This document shows, piece by piece, positions 45,857 to 53,105 of a stretch of 64,000 nucleotides of DNA. This stretch comes from Corynebacterium sp. KPL1814 (GTDB taxonomy: Bacteria; Actinomycetota; Actinomycetes; Mycobacteriales; Mycobacteriaceae), in contig NZ_KI515778.1 in assembly GCF_000478175.1 (NCBI RefSeq), positions 1-64,000 on the forward strand, given 5' to 3'. Position 1 is the stretch's first letter. Every line of letters begins with the position of its first letter. The translations under genes and the position numbers were made by a program. The notes under the pieces were generated by a model that was given only the letters and a program-made list of their open reading frames with translations, was not told the origin of the DNA and searched no databases.

Positions 45857-47170
45857 CTACTTCTCCCAGCCGATGTTTTCCTTAGGGACGACGGCGAATC
45901 CGGGGGCGCCCATGTTGGCGATGCCCTTCTTCAGGCCGACCATCTGTGGGCCGTTGGCGTACGGAAGCATTCCGTATTCTGCGAAGGCTTCGGACTCGAG
46001 CTCATTGATGCGCTTGATCTGCTCATCGCGGGTCGGCAGCTTCTGCATCTCTTCGATCTTTTTATCGAATTCCTCGGTACCGGTGCCGGACTTGTTGAGG
46101 GTGGAGTCGCTGGCGTAGGTCCGTCCGAAGAATGCTGGGCCGAAAGGGTCACTTGCCGCGAAGCCGGAGAGCAAGAGGTCGAAGTCGCGCTCGCTGACGA
46201 TCTTGGAGAAATCAGAGCTTGGGCGCTCCTCAATTTTCAGCTCAATGCCCGCGTCCTTCAGCATCTTTTGGACGGCGGCAGCGGTTGACTTGGAGACCTC
46301 GTCATCGCCGATAAGCACGTAGCGAAGTGTAAGCTTTTCGCCGTCCTTGCCGTAGTAGCCATCATCGCCTTGAGTGTAGCCGGCGTCTTCCAGCAGGCTC
46401 TTGGCCTCTTCAACGTCGTACTCGAGTACCTCAGAAAGGTTGTCCTTGTAGTCTTCCTGGGTTGGGTAGAGTGCCAGGGAGCCAGGCATTTCCTCTTCAT
46501 AGCCAAGGCCGTTGTAGCGAATTTCTGCGAGCTGGTCGCGGTCGATGGCTGCAAAGACTGCGTGGCGAACATCCTTATCAGCCAGCTGCGGTGCCTTGGA
46601 GTTCAAGGTGAACAGGATGCTAGCCGGGCGGGTGGCTGCACGGACGTCGATGGAATCGCCCATATCTGCGGCGATGGTGAGGTTGTTCTTGATGCCTACA
46701 CCGGCAGCGTCGATTTCGCCAGCCTGGAAGGCGTTGATGGTTGCCTGGGACTCCATCGCGCGGTAGCTGACCTTATCCAGCTTCGGTTCATCGCCCCACC
46801 ACTTTTCGTTAGGAACGAAGGATACGGTGCCGCCGCGGAAGTCGGCGTTTTCTACCTTGAATGGGCCCGCACCGTACTGTGGGTTGAGCTTACCCAGGTA
46901 CTCCTGGTCAAACTTCTCGGCGGTATCGATCGCTGGGTGCAGGATGTCGTTGAAAAGTCCCTGCCACCATGGGTATGGACCCTCAAAGGTAACGACGGCC
47001 TCCTTGTCGTTTTCACCCTTCTCCACGTATTCGATCAGATCGTAACCATCGGTGGAGTTGACCTGGACGTTCATGTCCTTGCCGTTGTTGAAGCGCCAGG
47101 TGTTCTCGAAAGCGGTCTAGTCAATGGGGGTGCCATCGTTGAAGGTTGCGTCATCGTTGATGTGACCAAT
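45857..47170 (-). pseudogene. ABC transporter substrate-binding protein (SBP_bac_5), 5'-truncated with internal stop
   Basis: This is the remnant of a dipeptide/oligopeptide-type binding protein. An open frame of 405 codons runs from an internal Met at 47074. It includes the family's GPYPWWQGLF-like segment, GAGPFKVE and the repeated helices of the C-terminal lobe. Upstream in the same frame the protein continues as NDDATFNDGTPID, then a TAG at 47119-47117 (where homologues usually have a Trp codon), then TAFENTWRFNNG. Before about 47170 similarity is lost, so the signal peptide, lipobox and roughly the first 80-100 residues are gone. No permease or ATPase genes are adjacent. It is almost certainly not functional. 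Confidence 0.85.
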
Positions 47171-47434
47171 CTAATAAGATATAAGCGAGCGCACAATGCA
47201 CGTAGCCTCGTGATGTACATCGCCAATCAAGCGACAGGTATTATTTCAGTGTAGGCACTTAGGGTGCTAATAAGAAAAATGGGATTCAGCTGCAGATTTA
47301 AAAACCTGAATTGTTTAACAGTTATAAGGAACGCTTACCTGAAAATAAGTGACAACGGGGGTAACCGATCGACCAGGGCGGGGCGATCCCCTGTGGCTGT
47401 ATTAGGGTGCAAGGGCTCGGTAGGCTAGACCCTT
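47171..47434. other. AT-richer gap beyond the pseudogene breakpoint
   Basis: About 260 bases contain no gene and no clear insertion-sequence end. The left half is clearly richer in A and T than the neighbours. It may mark the deletion or transfer that removed the 5' part of the binding-protein gene. Confidence 0.4.
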
Positions 47435-48133
47435 ATGGAAGATCCCACTCGCATTGACCCGACCTTGGCGGCGCTGCGCACGGCATGGGAGGGCCAGCCC
47501 GATCTGAGCCTGCCTACGCTTTTTGCCTTATTGGCCAACCGGGGCATCGGCTGGGGCGTGAGCGACGCGGAGTTGGTCGCCGAACTTGAGCGGCAGGCCG
47601 AAGTTCACCCGCCGTTATTGCCCCTCGAGGATGGCCGTGTGGGCACAGGTGTGTGGCTCGTGCTTAGCGATGCCCCGACCTGCCGCATCACCGCCGATGC
47701 CTCTCATATCATTGTTCGCCGCGCGAATACTCAGCCAGTAGTGTGGCCATATAGCGCCATTAGGCCAACAGGGCCTGGCCGGCCCTTTGTGGTTACGGAT
47801 ACTGAGGGCTTTGAGCACCGTCTTGGAATCGTCTCCAGCATCATGCGCTTGGCTGACCGGCTACCAGAACTCAGCGGCCTTAAACGCTACGAGTTGGGTG
47901 ACTTTGTCTATGTCCTCCGCTTCGAGGACGCGATTGCAGTTCTAGACCACGGATTGCATCTCTTTCATAAGGAGAATCGGCGGGTGGTGGCCCGCGATTA
48001 TGCGTGGAAAAGGATAGAAAAATGCCGCCCCGGCGAGGAGCTGGAAGTACTCCTCGAGGGCGGCGATTATGCGCGATTGGGCAAGGTGGTTGAGGTCCTT
48101 GTTGCTGAGACCCCAAACCCCTTATTCAGCTAA
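47435..48133 (+). CDS. hypothetical protein, 232 residues
   Basis: No membrane helix or signal peptide is present. The N-terminal 60 residues are helical (DPTLAALRTAWEGQPDLSLPTLFALLANRG), resembling a small winged or helical module. The rest is beta-rich with regularly spaced hydrophobic strands and an SSIMRLADRLPEL helix. No family is recognised. It starts after the breakpoint region and ends convergently, overlapping the last 12 bases of the AmaP-like gene. Codon use is typical of the host. Confidence 0.7.
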   Translation: MEDPTRIDPTLAALRTAWEGQPDLSLPTLFALLANRGIGWGVSDAELVAELERQAEVHPPLLPLEDGRVGTGVWLVLSDAPTCRITADASHIIVRRANTQPVVWPYSAIRPTGPGRPFVVTDTEGFEHRLGIVSSIMRLADRLPELSGLKRYELGDFVYVLRFEDAIAVLDHGLHLFHKENRRVVARDYAWKRIEKCRPGEELEVLLEGGDYARLGKVVEVLVAETPNPLFS

Positions 48134-48697
48134 ATCCTTCATCGGCTTAACCTTGGTGAAGTGCAGCTTATAGCTGGTATCCAAGTCAGCGTTTGGGAAA
48201 GCCTCCCGGAAGTCGCGTTCATTGGTCTCCACAGCATCAGTCAGTCTCTCCAGCGGGGTATCTGGGTTAGCAACCACCGTGTACTGCAGCGTTGGGCGGG
48301 CGCGGTCGTATGCAACCAAGCGGTCTACGCGTTCCACTCCATCGAGCGAGTCCAGATCCTTGGCCACCGCGGTGGCGATGGCGTTCATGGATGCAGAGAT
48401 TGCGCCTTGTTCATTGGAGGCTGCGGATTCCACATTATTAAAGCGGCGGTGACGAAGGTTCACGACGATGAGCCACAAGCCAATGATGAGCAGCAGGGCA
48501 GAGGCGCCAGCCAAGACCCACACCCACCAATTATTATCGCCCAAAGTGCGCCACGTATCGTGGTCTACCCACTCGGCCAAGTACTCAGCAAATTCCACAT
48601 TGAAGTTAATGAGGATCGGCCATACACCTAGCGCGATGAGGATAATTCCAAGCAAGCCGAGGAGGATTCGGTCAAAGGTAGCAAGCTTTTTAGACAT
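48122..48697 (-). CDS. AmaP-like alkaline shock membrane anchor
   Basis: The 191-residue product has two hydrophobic helices, at about 10-32 (ILLGLLGIILIALGVWPILI) and 57-82, forming a hairpin, then a cytoplasmic alpha/beta domain of about 100 residues. Such proteins (Amap/DUF6286-like) anchor Asp23-type proteins to the membrane. It is the last gene of the envelope-stress run, and its start overlaps the end of the previous gene by 8 bases. Assignment is from topology and context. Confidence 0.75.
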   Translation of the reverse strand: MSKKLATFDRILLGLLGIILIALGVWPILINFNVEFAEYLAEWVDHDTWRTLGDNNWWVWVLAGASALLLIIGLWLIVVNLRHRRFNNVESAASNEQGAISASMNAIATAVAKDLDSLDGVERVDRLVAYDRARPTLQYTVVANPDTPLERLTDAVETNERDFREAFPNADLDTSYKLHFTKVKPMKDLAE

Positions 48698-49256
48698 GAT
48701 TATCCATCTCCGGAATCTTCTCTACGGCTACGGTGACCTTGGGTGGGTCTGCAAGGACCTCTAAAGCGCGGGTGACAGCCTTTTCCACGCGCCCAGGCAA
48801 ATCGGCGTCTTGCTCATCGCCATTAACGGTGACCTTCGCGCTCTTGGTATCCGCCGAAGTCTGCGCGGAAGCAACTCCCGGAACACGGCGTGCTGCAGCA
48901 GAGCTCAATCGCGCGACATCGACTGGCCGCATCCACATGGAAGCGGACTCGGAAGCGACCTGGGTGTGGGTATTGCGACGGGTCTTTACCGCAGCGAATA
49001 CAAAGATGAGACCAACCACGATGGAAGCCACGCCAGCCCAGATCATCCACGTCTCTAATTGCTCGGTGGCAATAAGATCAAGGACCGGCTGAACCCACGA
49101 TTGGGCATTGGCATCTGCTCCGACAAGCCAGGTTTCGCGGACGCCCACAATGCCAATGGCAAGCAGAACGAAACCCAGAATTACGGTCCACGTGCGCACT
49201 GCAGGAGACGCCTTGGGCCGCTGCCCGAAATGCTCAGGCAAATTCATTTCAGCCAT
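48690..49256 (-). CDS. DUF6286-type membrane protein of Asp23 operon
   Basis: The 188-residue product has two hydrophobic helices, at about 20-40 (VRTWTVILGFVLLAIGIVGV) and 68-90 (MIWAGVASIVVGLIFVFA), and then a soluble domain with the pattern RPVDVARLSSAAARRVPGV that occurs in actinobacterial Asp23 clusters. The start at 49256 (MAEMNLPEHFG) follows GGAGGC-type RBS; a longer frame is not supported. It overlaps the upstream repeat-tailed gene by 8 bases, so translation is probably coupled. Confidence 0.8.
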   Translation of the reverse strand: MAEMNLPEHFGQRPKASPAVRTWTVILGFVLLAIGIVGVRETWLVGADANAQSWVQPVLDLIATEQLETWMIWAGVASIVVGLIFVFAAVKTRRNTHTQVASESASMWMRPVDVARLSSAAARRVPGVASAQTSADTKSAKVTVNGDEQDADLPGRVEKAVTRALEVLADPPKVTVAVEKIPEMDNHV

Positions 49257-50379
49257 TATTGCCTCCTTGCTCGTGGTACGGGGTAACGGAAATGGCACGC
49301 AGCGGCTCAGGCCGTGGCGCATAGACGTGCAACGGGCGCTGGCTAGCTGGCGATACCTCAATGCGCTTTAGCGGTTCCTGACGCGGGGTCTGAACCTTGC
49401 GCAGGGACGCGGGCCTAACGGTCCGCACGCGTTGCTCGCTTCGGGAATTGTCGATCTTGATCTTGCGCAGCGGCTGCGGGCGCGGTGGCTGCACCTTGCG
49501 CAGGGGAGCCGGGCGGGCAATGCGAACGCGCTTTTTCTGTTCTGAATTGTCGATCTCGATTTTGCGCAAAGGCTGCGGACGGGGAACAGAGACCTTTGCC
49601 TTTTTGACAAAGGGGCGTACCTGTCCGCTCGGAAGCAACCTGCCAGGGCGCGGAGCGCGAACGCTGCGTACCTGCTCTGGGCGTGGTTCGACGATGCGAC
49701 GCGGTTCGTGATCTTCTGGAGCGCTTATTTCTAGCAGCTGGTGGTCTGGAAGAGCAGCGGAAATGCTGCGCACCGATGCTTCTCGCGGCGTATCGACGGA
49801 GCGCACTGGCGTGTCACCAGAGGGCGTCGATACTCCGCGAACAGCAACTTCCTTTCCAGAAGAAATTTCGCGGATTTCCGCCTCTTGCGGGGTGTCGACG
49901 TTGCGAACCGTGGCTTCTTCCGGAGTCTCGATGCTTCGCACTTCGACCGAGTCATGAGTAACGGGTTGGGTCACGGTAGAAGGACTGACCTCCGGGGTAA
50001 AAGCTGAAGAGGCAGGACGCTGCGCAAGCTGTTCTGCGGTAACCCGGGTATCCGGAACCGATTCACCGACGGTGACATTAACGCGGGTGGTGGAATAGCC
50101 GGTATGGGCAGCAATAGCCTCTGAAATGGCGGCACGCGTACTTTCCGCGACTGCGGTAACCGGAGACGGCCACACCACAGCGATGGTCGCGCTCACGGCA
50201 GCGACTTCACGCTCTGGATCCATCTGTACCGAAACCCGTGGATAACCGCGTCCGCCAATGCCAGCAAGCTTGGCATCTAAATCTTTTGTGCCAGGCACGC
50301 TAGCAATTGCGGCGGTCACGATTCGTTCCATGGTCCGCAGCGAGAAACGCGTGTGGCCCTTAGTGGAACCTTCTGACAT
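49249..50379 (-). CDS. Asp23/Gls24-type protein with long repeat tail
   Basis: This 376-residue protein has an N-terminal Asp23-like domain at residues 15-110 (RTMERIVTAAIASVPG, GYPRVSVQMD, ATIAVVWPSPVTAVAESTR). An atypical tail follows. Residues 147-206 repeat units such as VRSIETPEEA, VRNVDTPQEA and VRSVDTPREA. Residues 267-332 are two tandem copies of a 33-residue basic unit (RPQPLRKI, IDNS, RPxxLRKVQ). The tail has no membrane segment and is strongly positive, so it may bind nucleic acid or anionic lipid or cell-wall polymer. The start is at 50379. Function is unknown beyond presumed Asp23 complex membership. Confidence 0.8.
   Translation of the reverse strand: MSEGSTKGHTRFSLRTMERIVTAAIASVPGTKDLDAKLAGIGGRGYPRVSVQMDPEREVAAVSATIAVVWPSPVTAVAESTRAAISEAIAAHTGYSTTRVNVTVGESVPDTRVTAEQLAQRPASSAFTPEVSPSTVTQPVTHDSVEVRSIETPEEATVRNVDTPQEAEIREISSGKEVAVRGVSTPSGDTPVRSVDTPREASVRSISAALPDHQLLEISAPEDHEPRRIVEPRPEQVRSVRAPRPGRLLPSGQVRPFVKKAKVSVPRPQPLRKIEIDNSEQKKRVRIARPAPLRKVQPPRPQPLRKIKIDNSRSEQRVRTVRPASLRKVQTPRQEPLKRIEVSPASQRPLHVYAPRPEPLRAISVTPYHEQGGNNG
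49384..49581 (-). repeat. two tandem 99-base repeats in the Asp23-type gene
   Basis: The two copies encode 33 residues each (267-299 and 300-332 of the protein). Protein identity is visibly high; the DNA copies differ at several third positions, so the duplication is not very recent. Confidence 0.8.
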
Positions 50380-50573
50380 TAGCCTTGGCCTTTCTCCTTG
50401 CCAATGAGGCCATTCCACACAGCGCTGAGGTCGATGCGGCCATCAAAGTGGGAGCCCAAGAGGCCACCGACGGCAGCAAGCAGCACGGCGAGCAGCGTCC
50501 AACCCCAACCTAAGTACAAAAAGAAGGCAAGTAGTAGGCCGATAACAATGCCCAATGTGGTGTAATTCTTCAT
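50379..50573 (-). CDS. DUF2273 small membrane protein
   Basis: The 64-residue product has two hydrophobic helices (TLGIVIGLLLAFFLYLG and WTLLAVLLAAVGGLLG) and the family ending GRIDLSAVWNGLIG. DUF2273 proteins accompany Asp23 genes in Firmicutes and actinobacteria. The stop overlaps the start of the next gene by one base, so they are translationally coupled. The start is two bases after the preceding gene's end. Confidence 0.85.
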   Translation of the reverse strand: MKNYTTLGIVIGLLLAFFLYLGWGWTLLAVLLAAVGGLLGSHFDGRIDLSAVWNGLIGKEKGQG

Positions 50574-50575
50574 AT

Positions 50576-50923
50576 CTAATCCTTCGAGGGAGCAGCGGAT
50601 AAGCCATCTACGGCGTCAGAAAACTCAACGTCGACGCGTTCCAGCTCCGTACATGCCTTGCGGGCGGCCGAGCGGATTTCTTCCGCTAGGCGGTACAGAT
50701 CAGGCTGCGCACTGATATCAACACGGACGTTGATTTGCAGGTGGCGATCGTCGCGGGGATCGGGCCGGCGCATGCCGGTAACCCTTTCGCCCGGGAAGAG
50801 TAGGCTCACCGAGCCGTAGGGTCCGCCGTCAAGGCCCGCGACACCGTTGAGCTTTTGCACCGCTTCCGCAATTGCGTGAGCGTGGCTTACCTCGAGCTCA
50901 AATTGTGCTCGGGGTTCAGGCAT
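50576..50923 (-). CDS. small Asp23-operon protein, Asp23-like fold possible
   Basis: This 115-residue soluble protein alternates short strands and helices (AHAIAEAVQKLNGV, HLQINVRVDISAQPDLYRLAEEIR), similar in pattern to a reduced Asp23 domain. No strong family match is recalled. It lies 5 bases after the Asp23 gene stop and 2 bases before DUF2273, so it belongs to the same transcript. Function is unknown. Confidence 0.7.
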   Translation of the reverse strand: MPEPRAQFELEVSHAHAIAEAVQKLNGVAGLDGGPYGSVSLLFPGERVTGMRRPDPRDDRHLQINVRVDISAQPDLYRLAEEIRSAARKACTELERVDVEFSDAVDGLSAAPSKD

Positions 50924-50928
50924 TGCTC

Positions 50929-51408
50929 TTATGCCTGGCCCTGGTTCAGTGCAGCCTGCTCTTCAGACTCGGAGTCTTCCTTCGGCAGCTTGACGTTGTG
51001 AACAACAACATCAACGCGTTCTACGGTCAGGCCGGTCATGCGCTCGACAGCGTTCATGATGTTGCGGCGGATTGCCTCAGCCAGCTCGTGGATAGCAACA
51101 CCGTACTCAGCGGTGATGGCGATCTCGATCTTTGCGGAGCCGTTTTCTACCTCTACGTCAACACCCTGGCGTACGTCCTCGGATGCACCGAAGGACTCGC
51201 GGATGGTGCCCATCATGCGAGCGCCGCCGCCACCGAGGGAGTCAACGCCGGAAACTTCGCGGGCTGCAATGCCAGCGATCTTGGAAACAACGACGTCATC
51301 AATGGTGGTGGTGCCGTACTGAGTCTCCAGGTTGTTGTTTACCTCGCGCTCTTCAGAAGCGGCAACGTTGTTCTCAGAGTGCTTTGCAGGAGTGTTGTTC
51401 TCAGACAT
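50929..51408 (-). CDS. Asp23/Gls24 family envelope stress response protein
   Basis: The 159-residue product has a hydrophilic N-terminus (Asn/Glu-rich) and then the Asp23 domain at about 30-135: GTTTIDDVVVSKIAGIAAREVSG, VEVENGSAKIEIAITAEYG, IRRNIMNAVERMTGL and VERVDVVVHNV. Family members are abundant cytoplasmic proteins attached to the membrane through AmaP and are induced by cell-envelope stress in staphylococci. It is the first gene of a six-gene minus-strand run ending at 48122. Confidence 0.93.
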   Translation of the reverse strand: MSENNTPAKHSENNVAASEEREVNNNLETQYGTTTIDDVVVSKIAGIAAREVSGVDSLGGGGARMMGTIRESFGASEDVRQGVDVEVENGSAKIEIAITAEYGVAIHELAEAIRRNIMNAVERMTGLTVERVDVVVHNVKLPKEDSESEEQAALNQGQA

Positions 51409-52119
51409 GGTCTTTAAGGCCTTTCCTTAAATATTGACTTGCATGGTCGCAATATGAAATTGAAGGACCAAGAACCAGCGGTTCAAAATCCTTCCTTGAG
51501 CGTACCTACCGCTTAACCACACGTGGGGTCTGGGACAACAATATTTACCAAAACGTGATTATTGGCACTATTGCTGGGATGGTTTGAAAAACACCAGCCC
51601 ATCGTGCTTAAATATTTAGGTTGCTTTAACAGGGCAGCGCGAACCGGTAACGCACCGTCTTAGACACGGTGCATATCGGCGAGACGCTGAGCTGGTAAAG
51701 CGAACATGACACCTTCGTTGTCACCGTGGATCAGGATTTTCCTGAAACACAGACTGGAAGGTCATCCGATCGGGCTAGGTCCGCGCTAGAGCAGAGACAC
51801 CCCGAGACGATGGACCGGAGAAGGGGCATGGCAAATAAACAGCGGCAGTTAGCGAATAGGACACTCTCCACGTGTAATGCGTGAAAACCGTCCTCTTCAC
51901 AATACTTTGACTACGGGTCTTGTGCCCCGTCAGGAGCACTGCAGACTGGCATTTGCCATGTGCTGTATCTCTTGGTTGTCATGACAGTCAGACCACTGGC
52001 GTTGTGTCAGGCCCCAGGCCCGGACAACGTTATAGAGAAATCGAGAAGCAATTTCCCACCGCTTCACGCCCCGGAAACGCCGGGAATGTGAAAGTGGGGA
52101 AGCGAGGAAGAGGATAAGC
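51409..52119. other. 711-base intergenic region between asp23 and S10 operon
   Basis: It must contain both divergent promoters and a long rpsJ leader. Visible structures are GCACCGT/ACGGTGC at 51652-51672, TGACA/TGTCA at 51707-51723, an inverted pair GCATGGCAAA (51827) and TTTGCCATG (51952), a perfect palindrome TGTCATGACA at 51977-51986, and a strong hairpin at 52055-52098. No protein frame with an RBS is convincing. A small RNA is possible but not shown. Confidence 0.5.
52055..52098 (+). promoter_or_regulatory. three-helix hairpin in the rpsJ leader
   Basis: CCCAC/GTGGG, TTCAC/GTGAA and CCCGG/CCGGG are nested, with small internal loops and an AAACG apical loop: about 15 base pairs in 44 bases. 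It lies 20 bases before the rpsJ start codon, where an autoregulatory r-protein site is commonly found. Confidence 0.65.
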
Positions 52120-52425
52120 GTGGCGGGACAAAAGATCCGCATTCGGCTGAAGGCCTATGACCACGAGGCAATCGACGCTTCTGCAAAGAAGATCGTCGAG
52201 ACCGTTACCCGTACGGGTGCTCGTGTAGTTGGCCCAGTGCCGCTCCCAACCGAGAAGAACGTGTACGCAGTTATTCGTTCTCCGCACAAGTACAAGGACT
52301 CTCGCGAGCACTTCGAGATGCGCACGCACAAGCGCCTGATCGATATTCTCGACCCGACCCCGAAGACCGTTGATGCTTTGATGCGCATCGATCTTCCGGC
52401 AAGCGTCGACGTGAACATCCAGTAA
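52120..52425 (+). CDS. rpsJ: 30S ribosomal protein S10
   Basis: The 101-residue S10 ([19 protein letters not shown]) has the family motif [11 protein letters not shown] and [19 protein letters not shown]. It is the first gene of the S10 operon. The GTG start at 52120 follows GAGGAAGAGGA. L3 follows after 23 bases. Confidence 0.98.
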
Positions 52426-52448
52426 GCGACTTTGGTGGAGAACTAATA

Positions 52449-53105
52449 ATGAGTGAAAACGAGATCAAGGGCATTCTGGGCAAGAAGCTCGGCATGACCC
52501 AGGTCTTCGACGACGAAAACCGCGTTGTTCCGGTTACCGTCGTTGAAGCAGGGCCATGCGTTGTCACCCAGATTCGCACCCCCGAAACCGATGGCTACAG
52601 CGCCATCCAAATCGCCTTTGGCGAGATTGACCCACGCAAGGCAAACAAGCCTGAGTCTGGTCACTTCAAAAAGGCTGGCGTAACCCCGCGTCGTCACGTT
52701 GCGGAAATCCGCATGGACGACACCTCCGCATACGAGGTTGGCCAAGAGGTCAAGGTAGACATCTTCGAAGACATCACTTTCGTTGACGTCACCGGCCAGA
52801 CCAAGGGCCACGGCTACGCTGGTGCTATGAAGCGCCACGGCTTCCAGGGTCAGGGCGCAGCTCACGGTAACCAGGCCGCTCACCGCCGCGTTGGTGGTAT
52901 CGGTGGCGCTGCTACCCCTGGCCGCGTCTTCAAGGGCAAGCGCATGGCTGGCCGCATGGGCCACGACCGCGTGACGACCCAAAACCTGAAGATTCAGAAA
53001 GTCGATGTCGAGTCCAACCTGCTGCTCATCAAGGGTGCTATCCCTGGTGCGCGCGGTGGCCTCGTCACCGTTAAGACCGCAGTGAAGGGCGGTGCACACG
53101 CATGA
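52449..53105 (+). CDS. rplC: 50S ribosomal protein L3
   Basis: The 218-residue L3 has the early [18 protein letters not shown] and the loop region [15 protein letters not shown] with [16 protein letters not shown] that approaches the peptidyl transferase centre. It overlaps rplD by 4 bases. Confidence 0.98.

What the first reader, a model, noticed from the sequence alone, without database searches (positions are those of the whole stretch)
48122..51408. Six-gene Asp23-type operon containing a repeat-tailed Asp23 protein
Asp23, a 115-residue companion, DUF2273, an Asp23-like protein with a 250-residue repeat tail, a DUF6286-type protein and an AmaP-like anchor follow each other with overlaps of 1 to 8 bases or gaps of 2 to 5 bases. 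The repeat tail (VRxVxTPxEA units, then two 33-residue basic repeats with PLRK cores) is not a feature I know in this family. It could tether the Asp23 sheet to nucleic acid, anionic lipid or polymer.
Basis: partly seen in the sequence, partly recalled or inferred. Interest (0 to 1): 0.6.

Follow-up and report, generated by a model that had tools for sequence, protein, structure and literature searches.

The report
11-residue repeat tail on Asp23 protein
Most Corynebacterium species carry, inside an otherwise ordinary envelope-stress operon, an Asp23 protein with a long tail built from repeats of an 11-residue, proline-rich motif whose purpose is unknown but which evolution clearly preserves.

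Summary
On the minus strand, 48122-51408 encodes Asp23, a probable short Asp23 paralogue, DUF2273, Asp23-plus-tail ("AspR", my label), DUF6286 and AmaP, with gaps of 5 and 2 bases and overlaps of 1, 8 and 8. The operon is ordinary: the same set occurs in other genera.

Its unit is 11 residues, P-x-P-x-P-[LV]-R-x-[VI]-x-[VA] (lag-11 z = 28.7 over 66 tails). The "33-residue repeats" are three units, duplicated in the window's nearest relatives. The window tail has 15 scored units. Of 101 Corynebacterium operon loci, 98 have two or more units and 90 a strong unit near the C-terminus. Indels between relatives peak at 11, 22 and 33 residues. Tail dN/dS is 0.12-0.38. Loci fetched from other genera show no comparable array (at most 3 units); several fuse this Asp23 domain to DUF6286 instead.

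Best explanation: an extended, disordered, multivalent tether in the membrane Asp23 layer, docking through its C-terminal unit. Binding nucleic acid or lipid by charge is possible but less likely: the best-conserved residues are Pro/Leu/Ile/Val, not Arg. Partner and function are undemonstrated.

The parts
50929..51408 (-). asp23, 159 aa, Asp23 (PF03780) protein; codon usage of a very highly expressed gene
   Evidence: 96.3 bits, cut-off 28; CAI 0.81 against a three-gene ribosomal-protein reference; the other five operon genes 0.46-0.51; median of 41 window ORFs 0.48
50576..50923 (-). 115-aa protein, probable short Asp23 paralogue
   Evidence: no Pfam or NCBIfam hit itself; 2 of 14 relatives hit PF03780; profile-profile probability 76% to Asp23 and 81% to AspR
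50379..50573 (-). DUF2273-type small membrane protein, 64 aa; 1-base overlap with AspR
   Evidence: 21.7 bits, below cut-off 25.4; two hydrophobic segments; iterated profile of it matches in 88 of 88 Corynebacterium loci
49249..50379 (-). AspR (my label): Asp23 domain plus 261-residue tail, 376 aa
50068..50361 (-). Asp23 domain of AspR (residues 7-104)
   Evidence: 24.6 bits, E 3.4e-5, below cut-off 28; relatives to 3.5e-14
49252..50034 (-). tail of AspR (residues 116-376): array of 11-residue units, consensus P-x-P-x-P-[LV]-R-x-[VI]-x-[VA], 15 scored units
   Evidence: periodicity, motif, held-out test; dN/dS
49456..49554 (-). 33-residue (3-unit) segment present in the window and L031-L033, absent in L034-L037: a whole-unit copy-number change
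   Evidence: alignment columns 287-319; 99-nt spaced DNA repeats
49285..49317 (-). C-terminal unit (residues 355-365), part of the most conserved stretch of the tail
   Evidence: residues 354-363 invariant in 8 of 8 sequences; last unit 14.2 bits against 9.9 for others; 84% against 65% identity; strong C-terminal unit in 90 of 101 loci
48690..49256 (-). DUF6286 protein, 188 aa, two hydrophobic segments; fused to the AspR-type Asp23 domain in several other genera
   Evidence: 43.8 bits, cut-off 35; scanned with one extra leading codon; fusions
48122..48697 (-). AmaP-type membrane anchor, 191 aa
   Evidence: NF033218 61.4 bits, cut-off 55; two hydrophobic segments

Best explanation
The operon encodes a membrane-attached cytoplasmic Asp23 layer of the S. 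aureus type: Asp23 in bulk, anchored by AmaP, DUF6286 and DUF2273. In Corynebacterium a minor Asp23 subunit (AspR) has acquired an extended, disordered tail made of up to 19 scored copies (median 8) of an 11-residue docking motif. I propose that each unit adopts a polyproline-II-like conformation and shows one hydrophobic ridge (P3-L6-[VI]9-P1 of the next unit, spaced i, i+3). I further propose that the strong C-terminal unit docks on an operon partner, most likely DUF6286/AmaP or another Asp23 domain. The array would then act as a length-variable, multivalent tether that cross-links the layer or holds AspR to the membrane subunits. In several other genera the same link is a direct covalent Asp23-DUF6286 fusion. 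Shown: the array, its conservation and selection, its absence from the loci fetched from other genera, and the fusions. Inferred: the layer itself in this genus, disorder, PPII conformation, docking partner, cross-linking.
For: 11-residue periodicity: VIL z 28.7, 16.5 and 12.4 at lags 11, 22 and 33, with P and R/K peaking at the same lags. Indels between 148 AspR pairs at least 55% identical peak at 11 (61), 22 (21) and 33 (16); every other length of 5 or more occurs 11 times or fewer. Held-out half (37 tails): 8.8 units per protein against 0.79 shuffled, and 161 of 290 spacings exactly 11. The C-terminal unit is strongest and most conserved. The four most conserved unit positions (6, 1, 9, 3) form one i, i+3 stripe; 11 of 330 four-position subsets would (noticed after seeing the data). 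Tail dN/dS is 0.12-0.38 in the 16 pairs computed. AlphaFold puts no strand in the tail, only short helical stretches at 115-119 and 281-283, pLDDT about 30-50. No usable tail of the 88-locus set reaches the hydropathy threshold for a membrane segment. Asp23-DUF6286 fusions occur in 8 of 20 family loci and 10 of 32 others, one of which, L141, is the same genome as L149. asp23 has ribosomal-protein-like codon usage, AspR average. In S. aureus, Asp23 is held at the membrane by AmaP and forms filaments (PMC6954212, passages).
Against: No binding partner was tested or predicted. The AlphaFold model is poor overall (mean pLDDT 43.8, 8 sequences), so disorder is weakly supported, and a folded repeat such as a beta-solenoid is not excluded. 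Positions 9 and 11 are also spaced like a beta-strand. 11 of 101 loci lack a strong C-terminal unit within 40 residues of the end, and 3 of 101 have fewer than two units. In aligned pairs, tail residues outside scored units are as conserved (67%) as non-terminal units (65%). The system is dispensable: 26 of 26 tested genomes without an AspR match have no Asp23-family protein.
Confidence: 0.4

Rival explanations
1. Charge tether: the basic C-terminal half of the tail holds the Asp23 layer to anionic polymer (membrane lipid, DNA, RNA or ribosomes).
For: The second half is more basic than the first in 63 of 78 tails (11 less, 4 tied; Wilcoxon 7e-10) and net charge is positive in 63 of 78. An S10 ribosomal protein gene lies in 84 of the 88 fetched stretches.
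Against: Position 7 (Arg) is 63% identical in aligned pairs, while positions 6, 1 and 9 are 81-91%. 15 of 78 tails are neutral or acidic, for example L053, L055, L058, L059, L096 and L098. Neighbourhood to S10 says nothing about binding.
Confidence: 0.2
2. Molecular spacer or ruler: unit number sets the distance of AspR's Asp23 domain from the C-terminal docking point, and the individual units bind nothing.
For: Tail lengths span 31-360 residues and change often in whole 11-residue units. The C-terminal unit is the best conserved.
Against: Length varies about tenfold within one genus, which a ruler of a fixed structure would not allow unless that structure varies too. Positions 1, 3, 6 and 9 of the units are conserved more than a pure spacer needs.
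Confidence: 0.2
3. The tail forms a folded repeat domain (a solenoid of 11-residue turns, or an oligomeric fibre) rather than a disordered array.
For: Strict 11-residue register, whole-unit indels and a conserved hydrophobic pattern are typical of solenoids too.
Against: AlphaFold gives no strands in the tail and low confidence, though with only 8 sequences. The fold comparison of that model tested essentially residues 7-111. Tails as short as two scored units exist (L075 and L113). About 17% Pro, and Phe, Tyr, Trp and Cys each 1% or less.
Confidence: 0.12
4. Nearly neutral low-complexity expansion of a GC-rich 3' end with no function of its own.
For: Length and internal sequence vary widely across the genus. 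The operon is absent from part of the genus. Unit and non-unit tail residues are about equally conserved, the last unit apart.
Against: dN/dS 0.12-0.38, unit phase kept through many indels, a strong C-terminal unit in 90 of 101 loci.
Confidence: 0.06

Closest known systems
Staphylococcus aureus Asp23-AmaP envelope stress system
   Same: Asp23 (PF03780) and an AmaP-type anchor (NF033218) are encoded together; asp23 here has the codon usage of an abundant protein. S. aureus Asp23 is membrane-held by AmaP, encoded in its operon, and forms filaments (PMC6954212, passages). That S. aureus also has a DUF2273 gene there is recalled.
   Different: Up to three Asp23-type soluble proteins instead of one, an added DUF6286 protein, and the 11-residue array on the third. 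Localisation and envelope role not tested here.
The actinobacterial Asp23 operon of other family and class members
   Same: Same order asp23 - short Asp23 - DUF2273 - Asp23 - DUF6286 - AmaP in most fetched loci; some lack a detectable short Asp23 or DUF2273, and L153/L154 show only the fused protein and AmaP.
   Different: There the third Asp23 usually ends within about 60 residues after the domain, or is fused to DUF6286, with 0-2 scored units. L148 is a partial exception (113-residue tail, 3 scored units).
Bacillus subtilis YqhY and YloU (Asp23 family)
   Same: Asp23-domain proteins; YqhY is linked to acetyl-CoA carboxylase control (PMC5437119, passages).
   Different: Different gene neighbourhood (accBC-yqhY, yloU-yloV). 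I recall no comparable tail; not checked by a call.
Proline-rich spacers such as that of TonB (recalled, not tested)
   Same: Extended proline-rich chain with an acidic-then-basic trend (recalled).
   Different: The tail is inferred cytoplasmic, has an 11-residue unit with conserved aliphatics, and no sequence relation was tested.

Membership tests
Asp23 family (PF03780), gene 1 | Profile score above the curated cut-off | tested here: met
   96.3 bits, cut-off 28
Asp23 family (PF03780), AspR domain | Profile score above the curated cut-off | tested here: inconclusive
   24.6 bits, cut-off 28, E 3.4e-5; 26 of 26 relatives match at E <= 0.01, best 3.5e-14
Asp23 family (PF03780), 115-aa protein | Profile match | tested here: inconclusive
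   no hit for the window protein; 2 of 14 relatives match, best 2e-6; profile-profile probability 76% and 81%. The cross-matches come from iterated profiles that had taken in both groups and count for little
AmaP anchor (NF033218) | Equivalog score above the curated cut-off | tested here: met
   61.4 bits, cut-off 55; two hydrophobic segments
AmaP anchor (NF033218) | Binds and recruits Asp23 to the membrane | not testable with these tools
   known for S. aureus (PMC6954212); needs an experiment
DUF6286 (PF19803) | Profile score above the curated cut-off | tested here: met
   43.8 bits, cut-off 35
DUF2273 (PF10031) | Profile score above the curated cut-off | tested here: inconclusive
   21.7 bits, cut-off 25.4; position and hydrophobicity fit
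S. aureus-type Asp23 envelope stress system | Membrane localisation; loss induces cell-wall stress response | not testable with these tools
   no expression or localisation data for this organism
Type III secretion ruler/switch proteins (FliK, PscP T3S4 domain) | T3S4 domain fold | tested here: inconclusive
   5cuk Z 8.1, rmsd 2.9, 90 aligned, and 2rrl Z 6.8, rmsd 3.8, 92 aligned, on a model of pLDDT 48; not among the 50 rows shown for the AspR model
Any described repeat family for the tail | Pfam repeat or domain match in the tail | tested here: not met
   26 of 26 members match only Asp23 at E <= 0.01; best PDB sequence match E 0.75

The most novel reading that the evidence does not exclude
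The tail is a new kind of bacterial multivalent array: an 11-residue polyproline-II docking motif whose copy number evolves in whole units. It would tether or cross-link a membrane Asp23 scaffold and set its spacing, making a Corynebacterium-specific, tunable form of an otherwise plain Asp23 layer.
Probability: 0.3. Interest if true: 0.68.

Novelty: new variant of a known kind. Interest (0 to 1): 0.52.

Why it matters
Asp23 proteins are described as ubiquitous in Gram-positive bacteria and highly expressed in B. subtilis and S. aureus (PMC5437119, passages), yet the molecular function of Asp23 is called unclear (PMC6954212, passages). An array found in nearly every operon-bearing Corynebacterium locus examined, with a sharp consensus and a strong C-terminal docking candidate, gives a concrete handle: a short peptide can be used to fish for the partner of the Asp23 layer. 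Natural copy-number variants (0-19 scored units) give ready-made length mutants. It also offers a bacterial example of a probably disordered tail evolving by whole-motif gain and loss under purifying selection.

Tried and rejected
Mycomembrane link: I asked whether absence of the operon follows absence of mycolate synthesis. Pks13 (NF040607) was found in 25 of 26 genomes lacking the operon and 24 of 26 having it. Two genomes with no Pks13 match, G005 and G006, keep AspR, and G005's tail (L069) is one of the most regular arrays. So no link was seen.

RNA element in or near the operon: no Rfam match at gathering threshold in 47000-53000.

Another protein in the same genome with this tail: one match only at E <= 1.

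Fold: both AlphaFold models are low confidence. VIA-align best matches reach Z 8.1 and 7.4, a level its notes call common: T3S4 domains for Asp23; MamM C-terminal domains, then a probable RNA-binding protein and RbfA, for AspR. I draw no fold conclusion. T3S4 ruler proteins were tempting as an analogy but did not recur.

Solved structures by sequence: nothing convincing for Asp23 (best E 0.49) or AspR (best E 0.75).

Literature: searches on Asp23/DUF2273/AmaP (21), Asp23+Corynebacterium (22; 20 of 50 papers listed), Asp23+Gls24+actinobacteria (49), DUF322/Asp23 (50; 25 of 1,973 listed), DUF6286/DUF2273 (62), alkaline shock protein+Corynebacterium+operon (66) and Gls24+Corynebacterium (67). No title or abstract start that I saw listed deals with this operon or tail in Corynebacterium. 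Papers opened by term search, passages only: PMC6954212, PMC9769785, PMC5437119, PMC7456259. The last names two Asp23-family hypothetical proteins of C. pseudotuberculosis. Subscription papers are largely not held.

Caveats on counts: the fetched loci were chosen from genomes that matched AspR, so 98 of 101 is conditional on a match. Pairs share sequences, and two tail dS values exceed 1.5. The stripe was noticed after seeing the conservation table. The 88 loci include the window, 7 named and 80 unnamed ones; some named loci are the same genome as an unnamed one (L034 and L039 have the same tail). Rows dropped: identical tails, one tail with X, and tails under 80 or 60 residues.
Full report
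OBSERVATION. Family calls: asp23 (PF03780, 96.3 bits), DUF6286 (43.8) and AmaP (NF033218, 61.4) pass curated cut-offs. DUF2273 (21.7) and the AspR Asp23 domain (24.6) are just below theirs; the 115-aa protein has no hit. 26 of 26 AspR relatives match Asp23. The 115-aa protein is probably a short Asp23 paralogue: 2 of 14 relatives match PF03780, best 2e-6, and its profile aligns to those of Asp23 (76%) and AspR (81%) (on alignments).

THE TAIL UNIT IS 11 RESIDUES. Autocorrelation on the 66 of these with 80 or more residues peaks at lag 11 (V/I/L z 28.7, P 20.8, R/K 15.8), then 22 and 33. An EM motif fit gives P-x-P-x-P-[LV]-R-x-[VI]-x-[VA], 8.7 units per protein against 0.67 in shuffled tails, with 286 spacings of exactly 11. 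Refitting on five shuffled sets gives log-likelihoods of 154-188 against 2316. A model trained on half the tails finds 8.8 units per protein in the other 37 against 0.79 shuffled. Its 33-residue repeats are three units, present in the window and L031-L033 and missing from L034-L037. Across 148 AspR pairs at least 55% identical, indel lengths peak at 11 (61), 22 (21) and 33 (16), while every other length of 5 or more occurs 11 times or fewer; short gaps of 1-4 are also common (98, 47, 33, 22). In disjoint pairs, 10 of 21 gaps of 8 or more are multiples of 11.

CONSERVATION AND SELECTION. The last unit scores 14.2 bits against 9.9 for others and is 84% against 65% identical in 20 aligned pairs. 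Within units, positions 6 (91%), 1 (83%), 9 (81%) and 3 (73%) are the most conserved. Read along a three-residue-per-turn chain, 3, 6, 9 and 12 (=1 of the next unit) are one face; 11 of the 330 four-position subsets are such a stripe (noticed post hoc). Tail dN/dS is 0.12-0.38 in 16 of 17 pairs (the 17th tail was saturated) and domain dN/dS 0.02-0.10 in all 17, so the tail looks translated and constrained, though less than the domain. Against the reading: tail residues outside scored units are as conserved (67%) as the non-terminal units (65%).

DISTRIBUTION. AspR is found in 191 of 242 genus genomes with the profile and 186 of 242 with the single sequence. In 26 of the 51 misses, tested for any PF03780 protein, none was found, so the family is absent there; the other 25 were not tested. 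Two or more Asp23-type ORFs precede DUF2273 in 87 of 88 loci (L069 shows one), and the short paralogue was not detected in 6 of the 20 more divergent loci. Of 20 loci fetched from other genera, 8 carry AspR's domain fused to DUF6286 (L163, with a 662-aa ORF, is ambiguous), and most others end within about 60 residues after the domain. Scored units are 0-2, except L148 with a 113-residue tail and 3. Across the class, 70 of 197 genomes match, the window's own included; outside Corynebacterium nearly every match ends in or shortly after the Asp23 domain, a few longer ones reading through stop codons. In 32 loci from the class and family searches, the tails hold 0 or 1 unit, and 10 have the fusion, one of them (L141) the same genome as L149. 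On this sample the array is a Corynebacterium development, weaker in some divergent members (for example L174 and L176: 333 residues, 4 units, no C-terminal unit).

EXPRESSION HINT. With S10, L3 and L4 of the window as reference (a small set), asp23 has CAI 0.81, above those genes themselves (0.67-0.77). The other five operon genes have 0.46-0.51, near the median 0.48 of 41 window ORFs. Asp23 is therefore probably the bulk protein and AspR a minor component (inference; one genome). A paper on B. subtilis cites about 25,000 Asp23 molecules per S. aureus cell (PMC5437119, passage).

STRUCTURE. AlphaFold with 8 sequences gives mean pLDDT 43.8, no strand in the tail and only short helical stretches at 115-119 and 281-283, and an alpha-alpha-beta-beta-alpha-beta domain. 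Asp23 with 15 sequences gives 47.7. Fold comparisons are at the level of common arrangements. No usable tail of the 88-locus set reaches the membrane-segment threshold (maximum 1.5 against 1.6); DUF2273, DUF6286 and AmaP each have two such segments, and a borderline one (1.66) lies in the AspR domain.

MECHANISM. The conserved features are a proline/aliphatic ridge repeated at 11 residues and a best-kept terminal copy. These look more like an array of docking motifs with a main C-terminal dock than a charge-based polymer binder, although most tails are also net basic with a more basic second half. The fusions elsewhere make DUF6286 the natural neighbour of this Asp23 domain. Hence the proposal of a long, length-variable, multivalent tether within the membrane Asp23 layer. 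Partner, conformation and effect are inferences. Mycolate synthesis does not track the operon.

VERDICT. An ordinary operon with an unusual, previously undescribed (in the sources searched) and well-supported tail.

Noticed in passing
L149, L150, L153-L158; L141 (same genome as L149), L142, L192, L193, L197-L199, L203, L208, L215: In other genera of the family and class, the third Asp23 domain and DUF6286 are one fused protein, a natural hint that the two act together.
   Followed up: partly
51 of 242 Corynebacterium genomes (e.g. G003, G007, G012): No AspR profile match; the 26 of these that were tested have no Asp23-family protein, so the operon is dispensable. Its absence does not follow absence of Pks13.
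   Followed up: partly
50929-51408: asp23 codon usage is at or above that of three ribosomal proteins, while the rest of its operon is average, suggesting very unequal protein amounts from one operon.
   Followed up: partly
47435-48133 (+) and 48122-48697 (-): A convergent 232-aa gene with no Pfam or NCBIfam match overlaps the 3' end of the AmaP gene by 12 bases; a relative lies in 72 of 88 Corynebacterium stretches.
   Followed up: partly
L117:2475-3578 (-): A tail holding several identical YSPETADGIEV 11-mers: apparently a recent tandem expansion in the same 11-residue register but with different residues.
   Followed up: no
L069:3028-4116 (-): One of the most regular and most basic arrays (net +36), in a genome (G005) with no Pks13 match, so possibly without mycolates.
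   Followed up: partly
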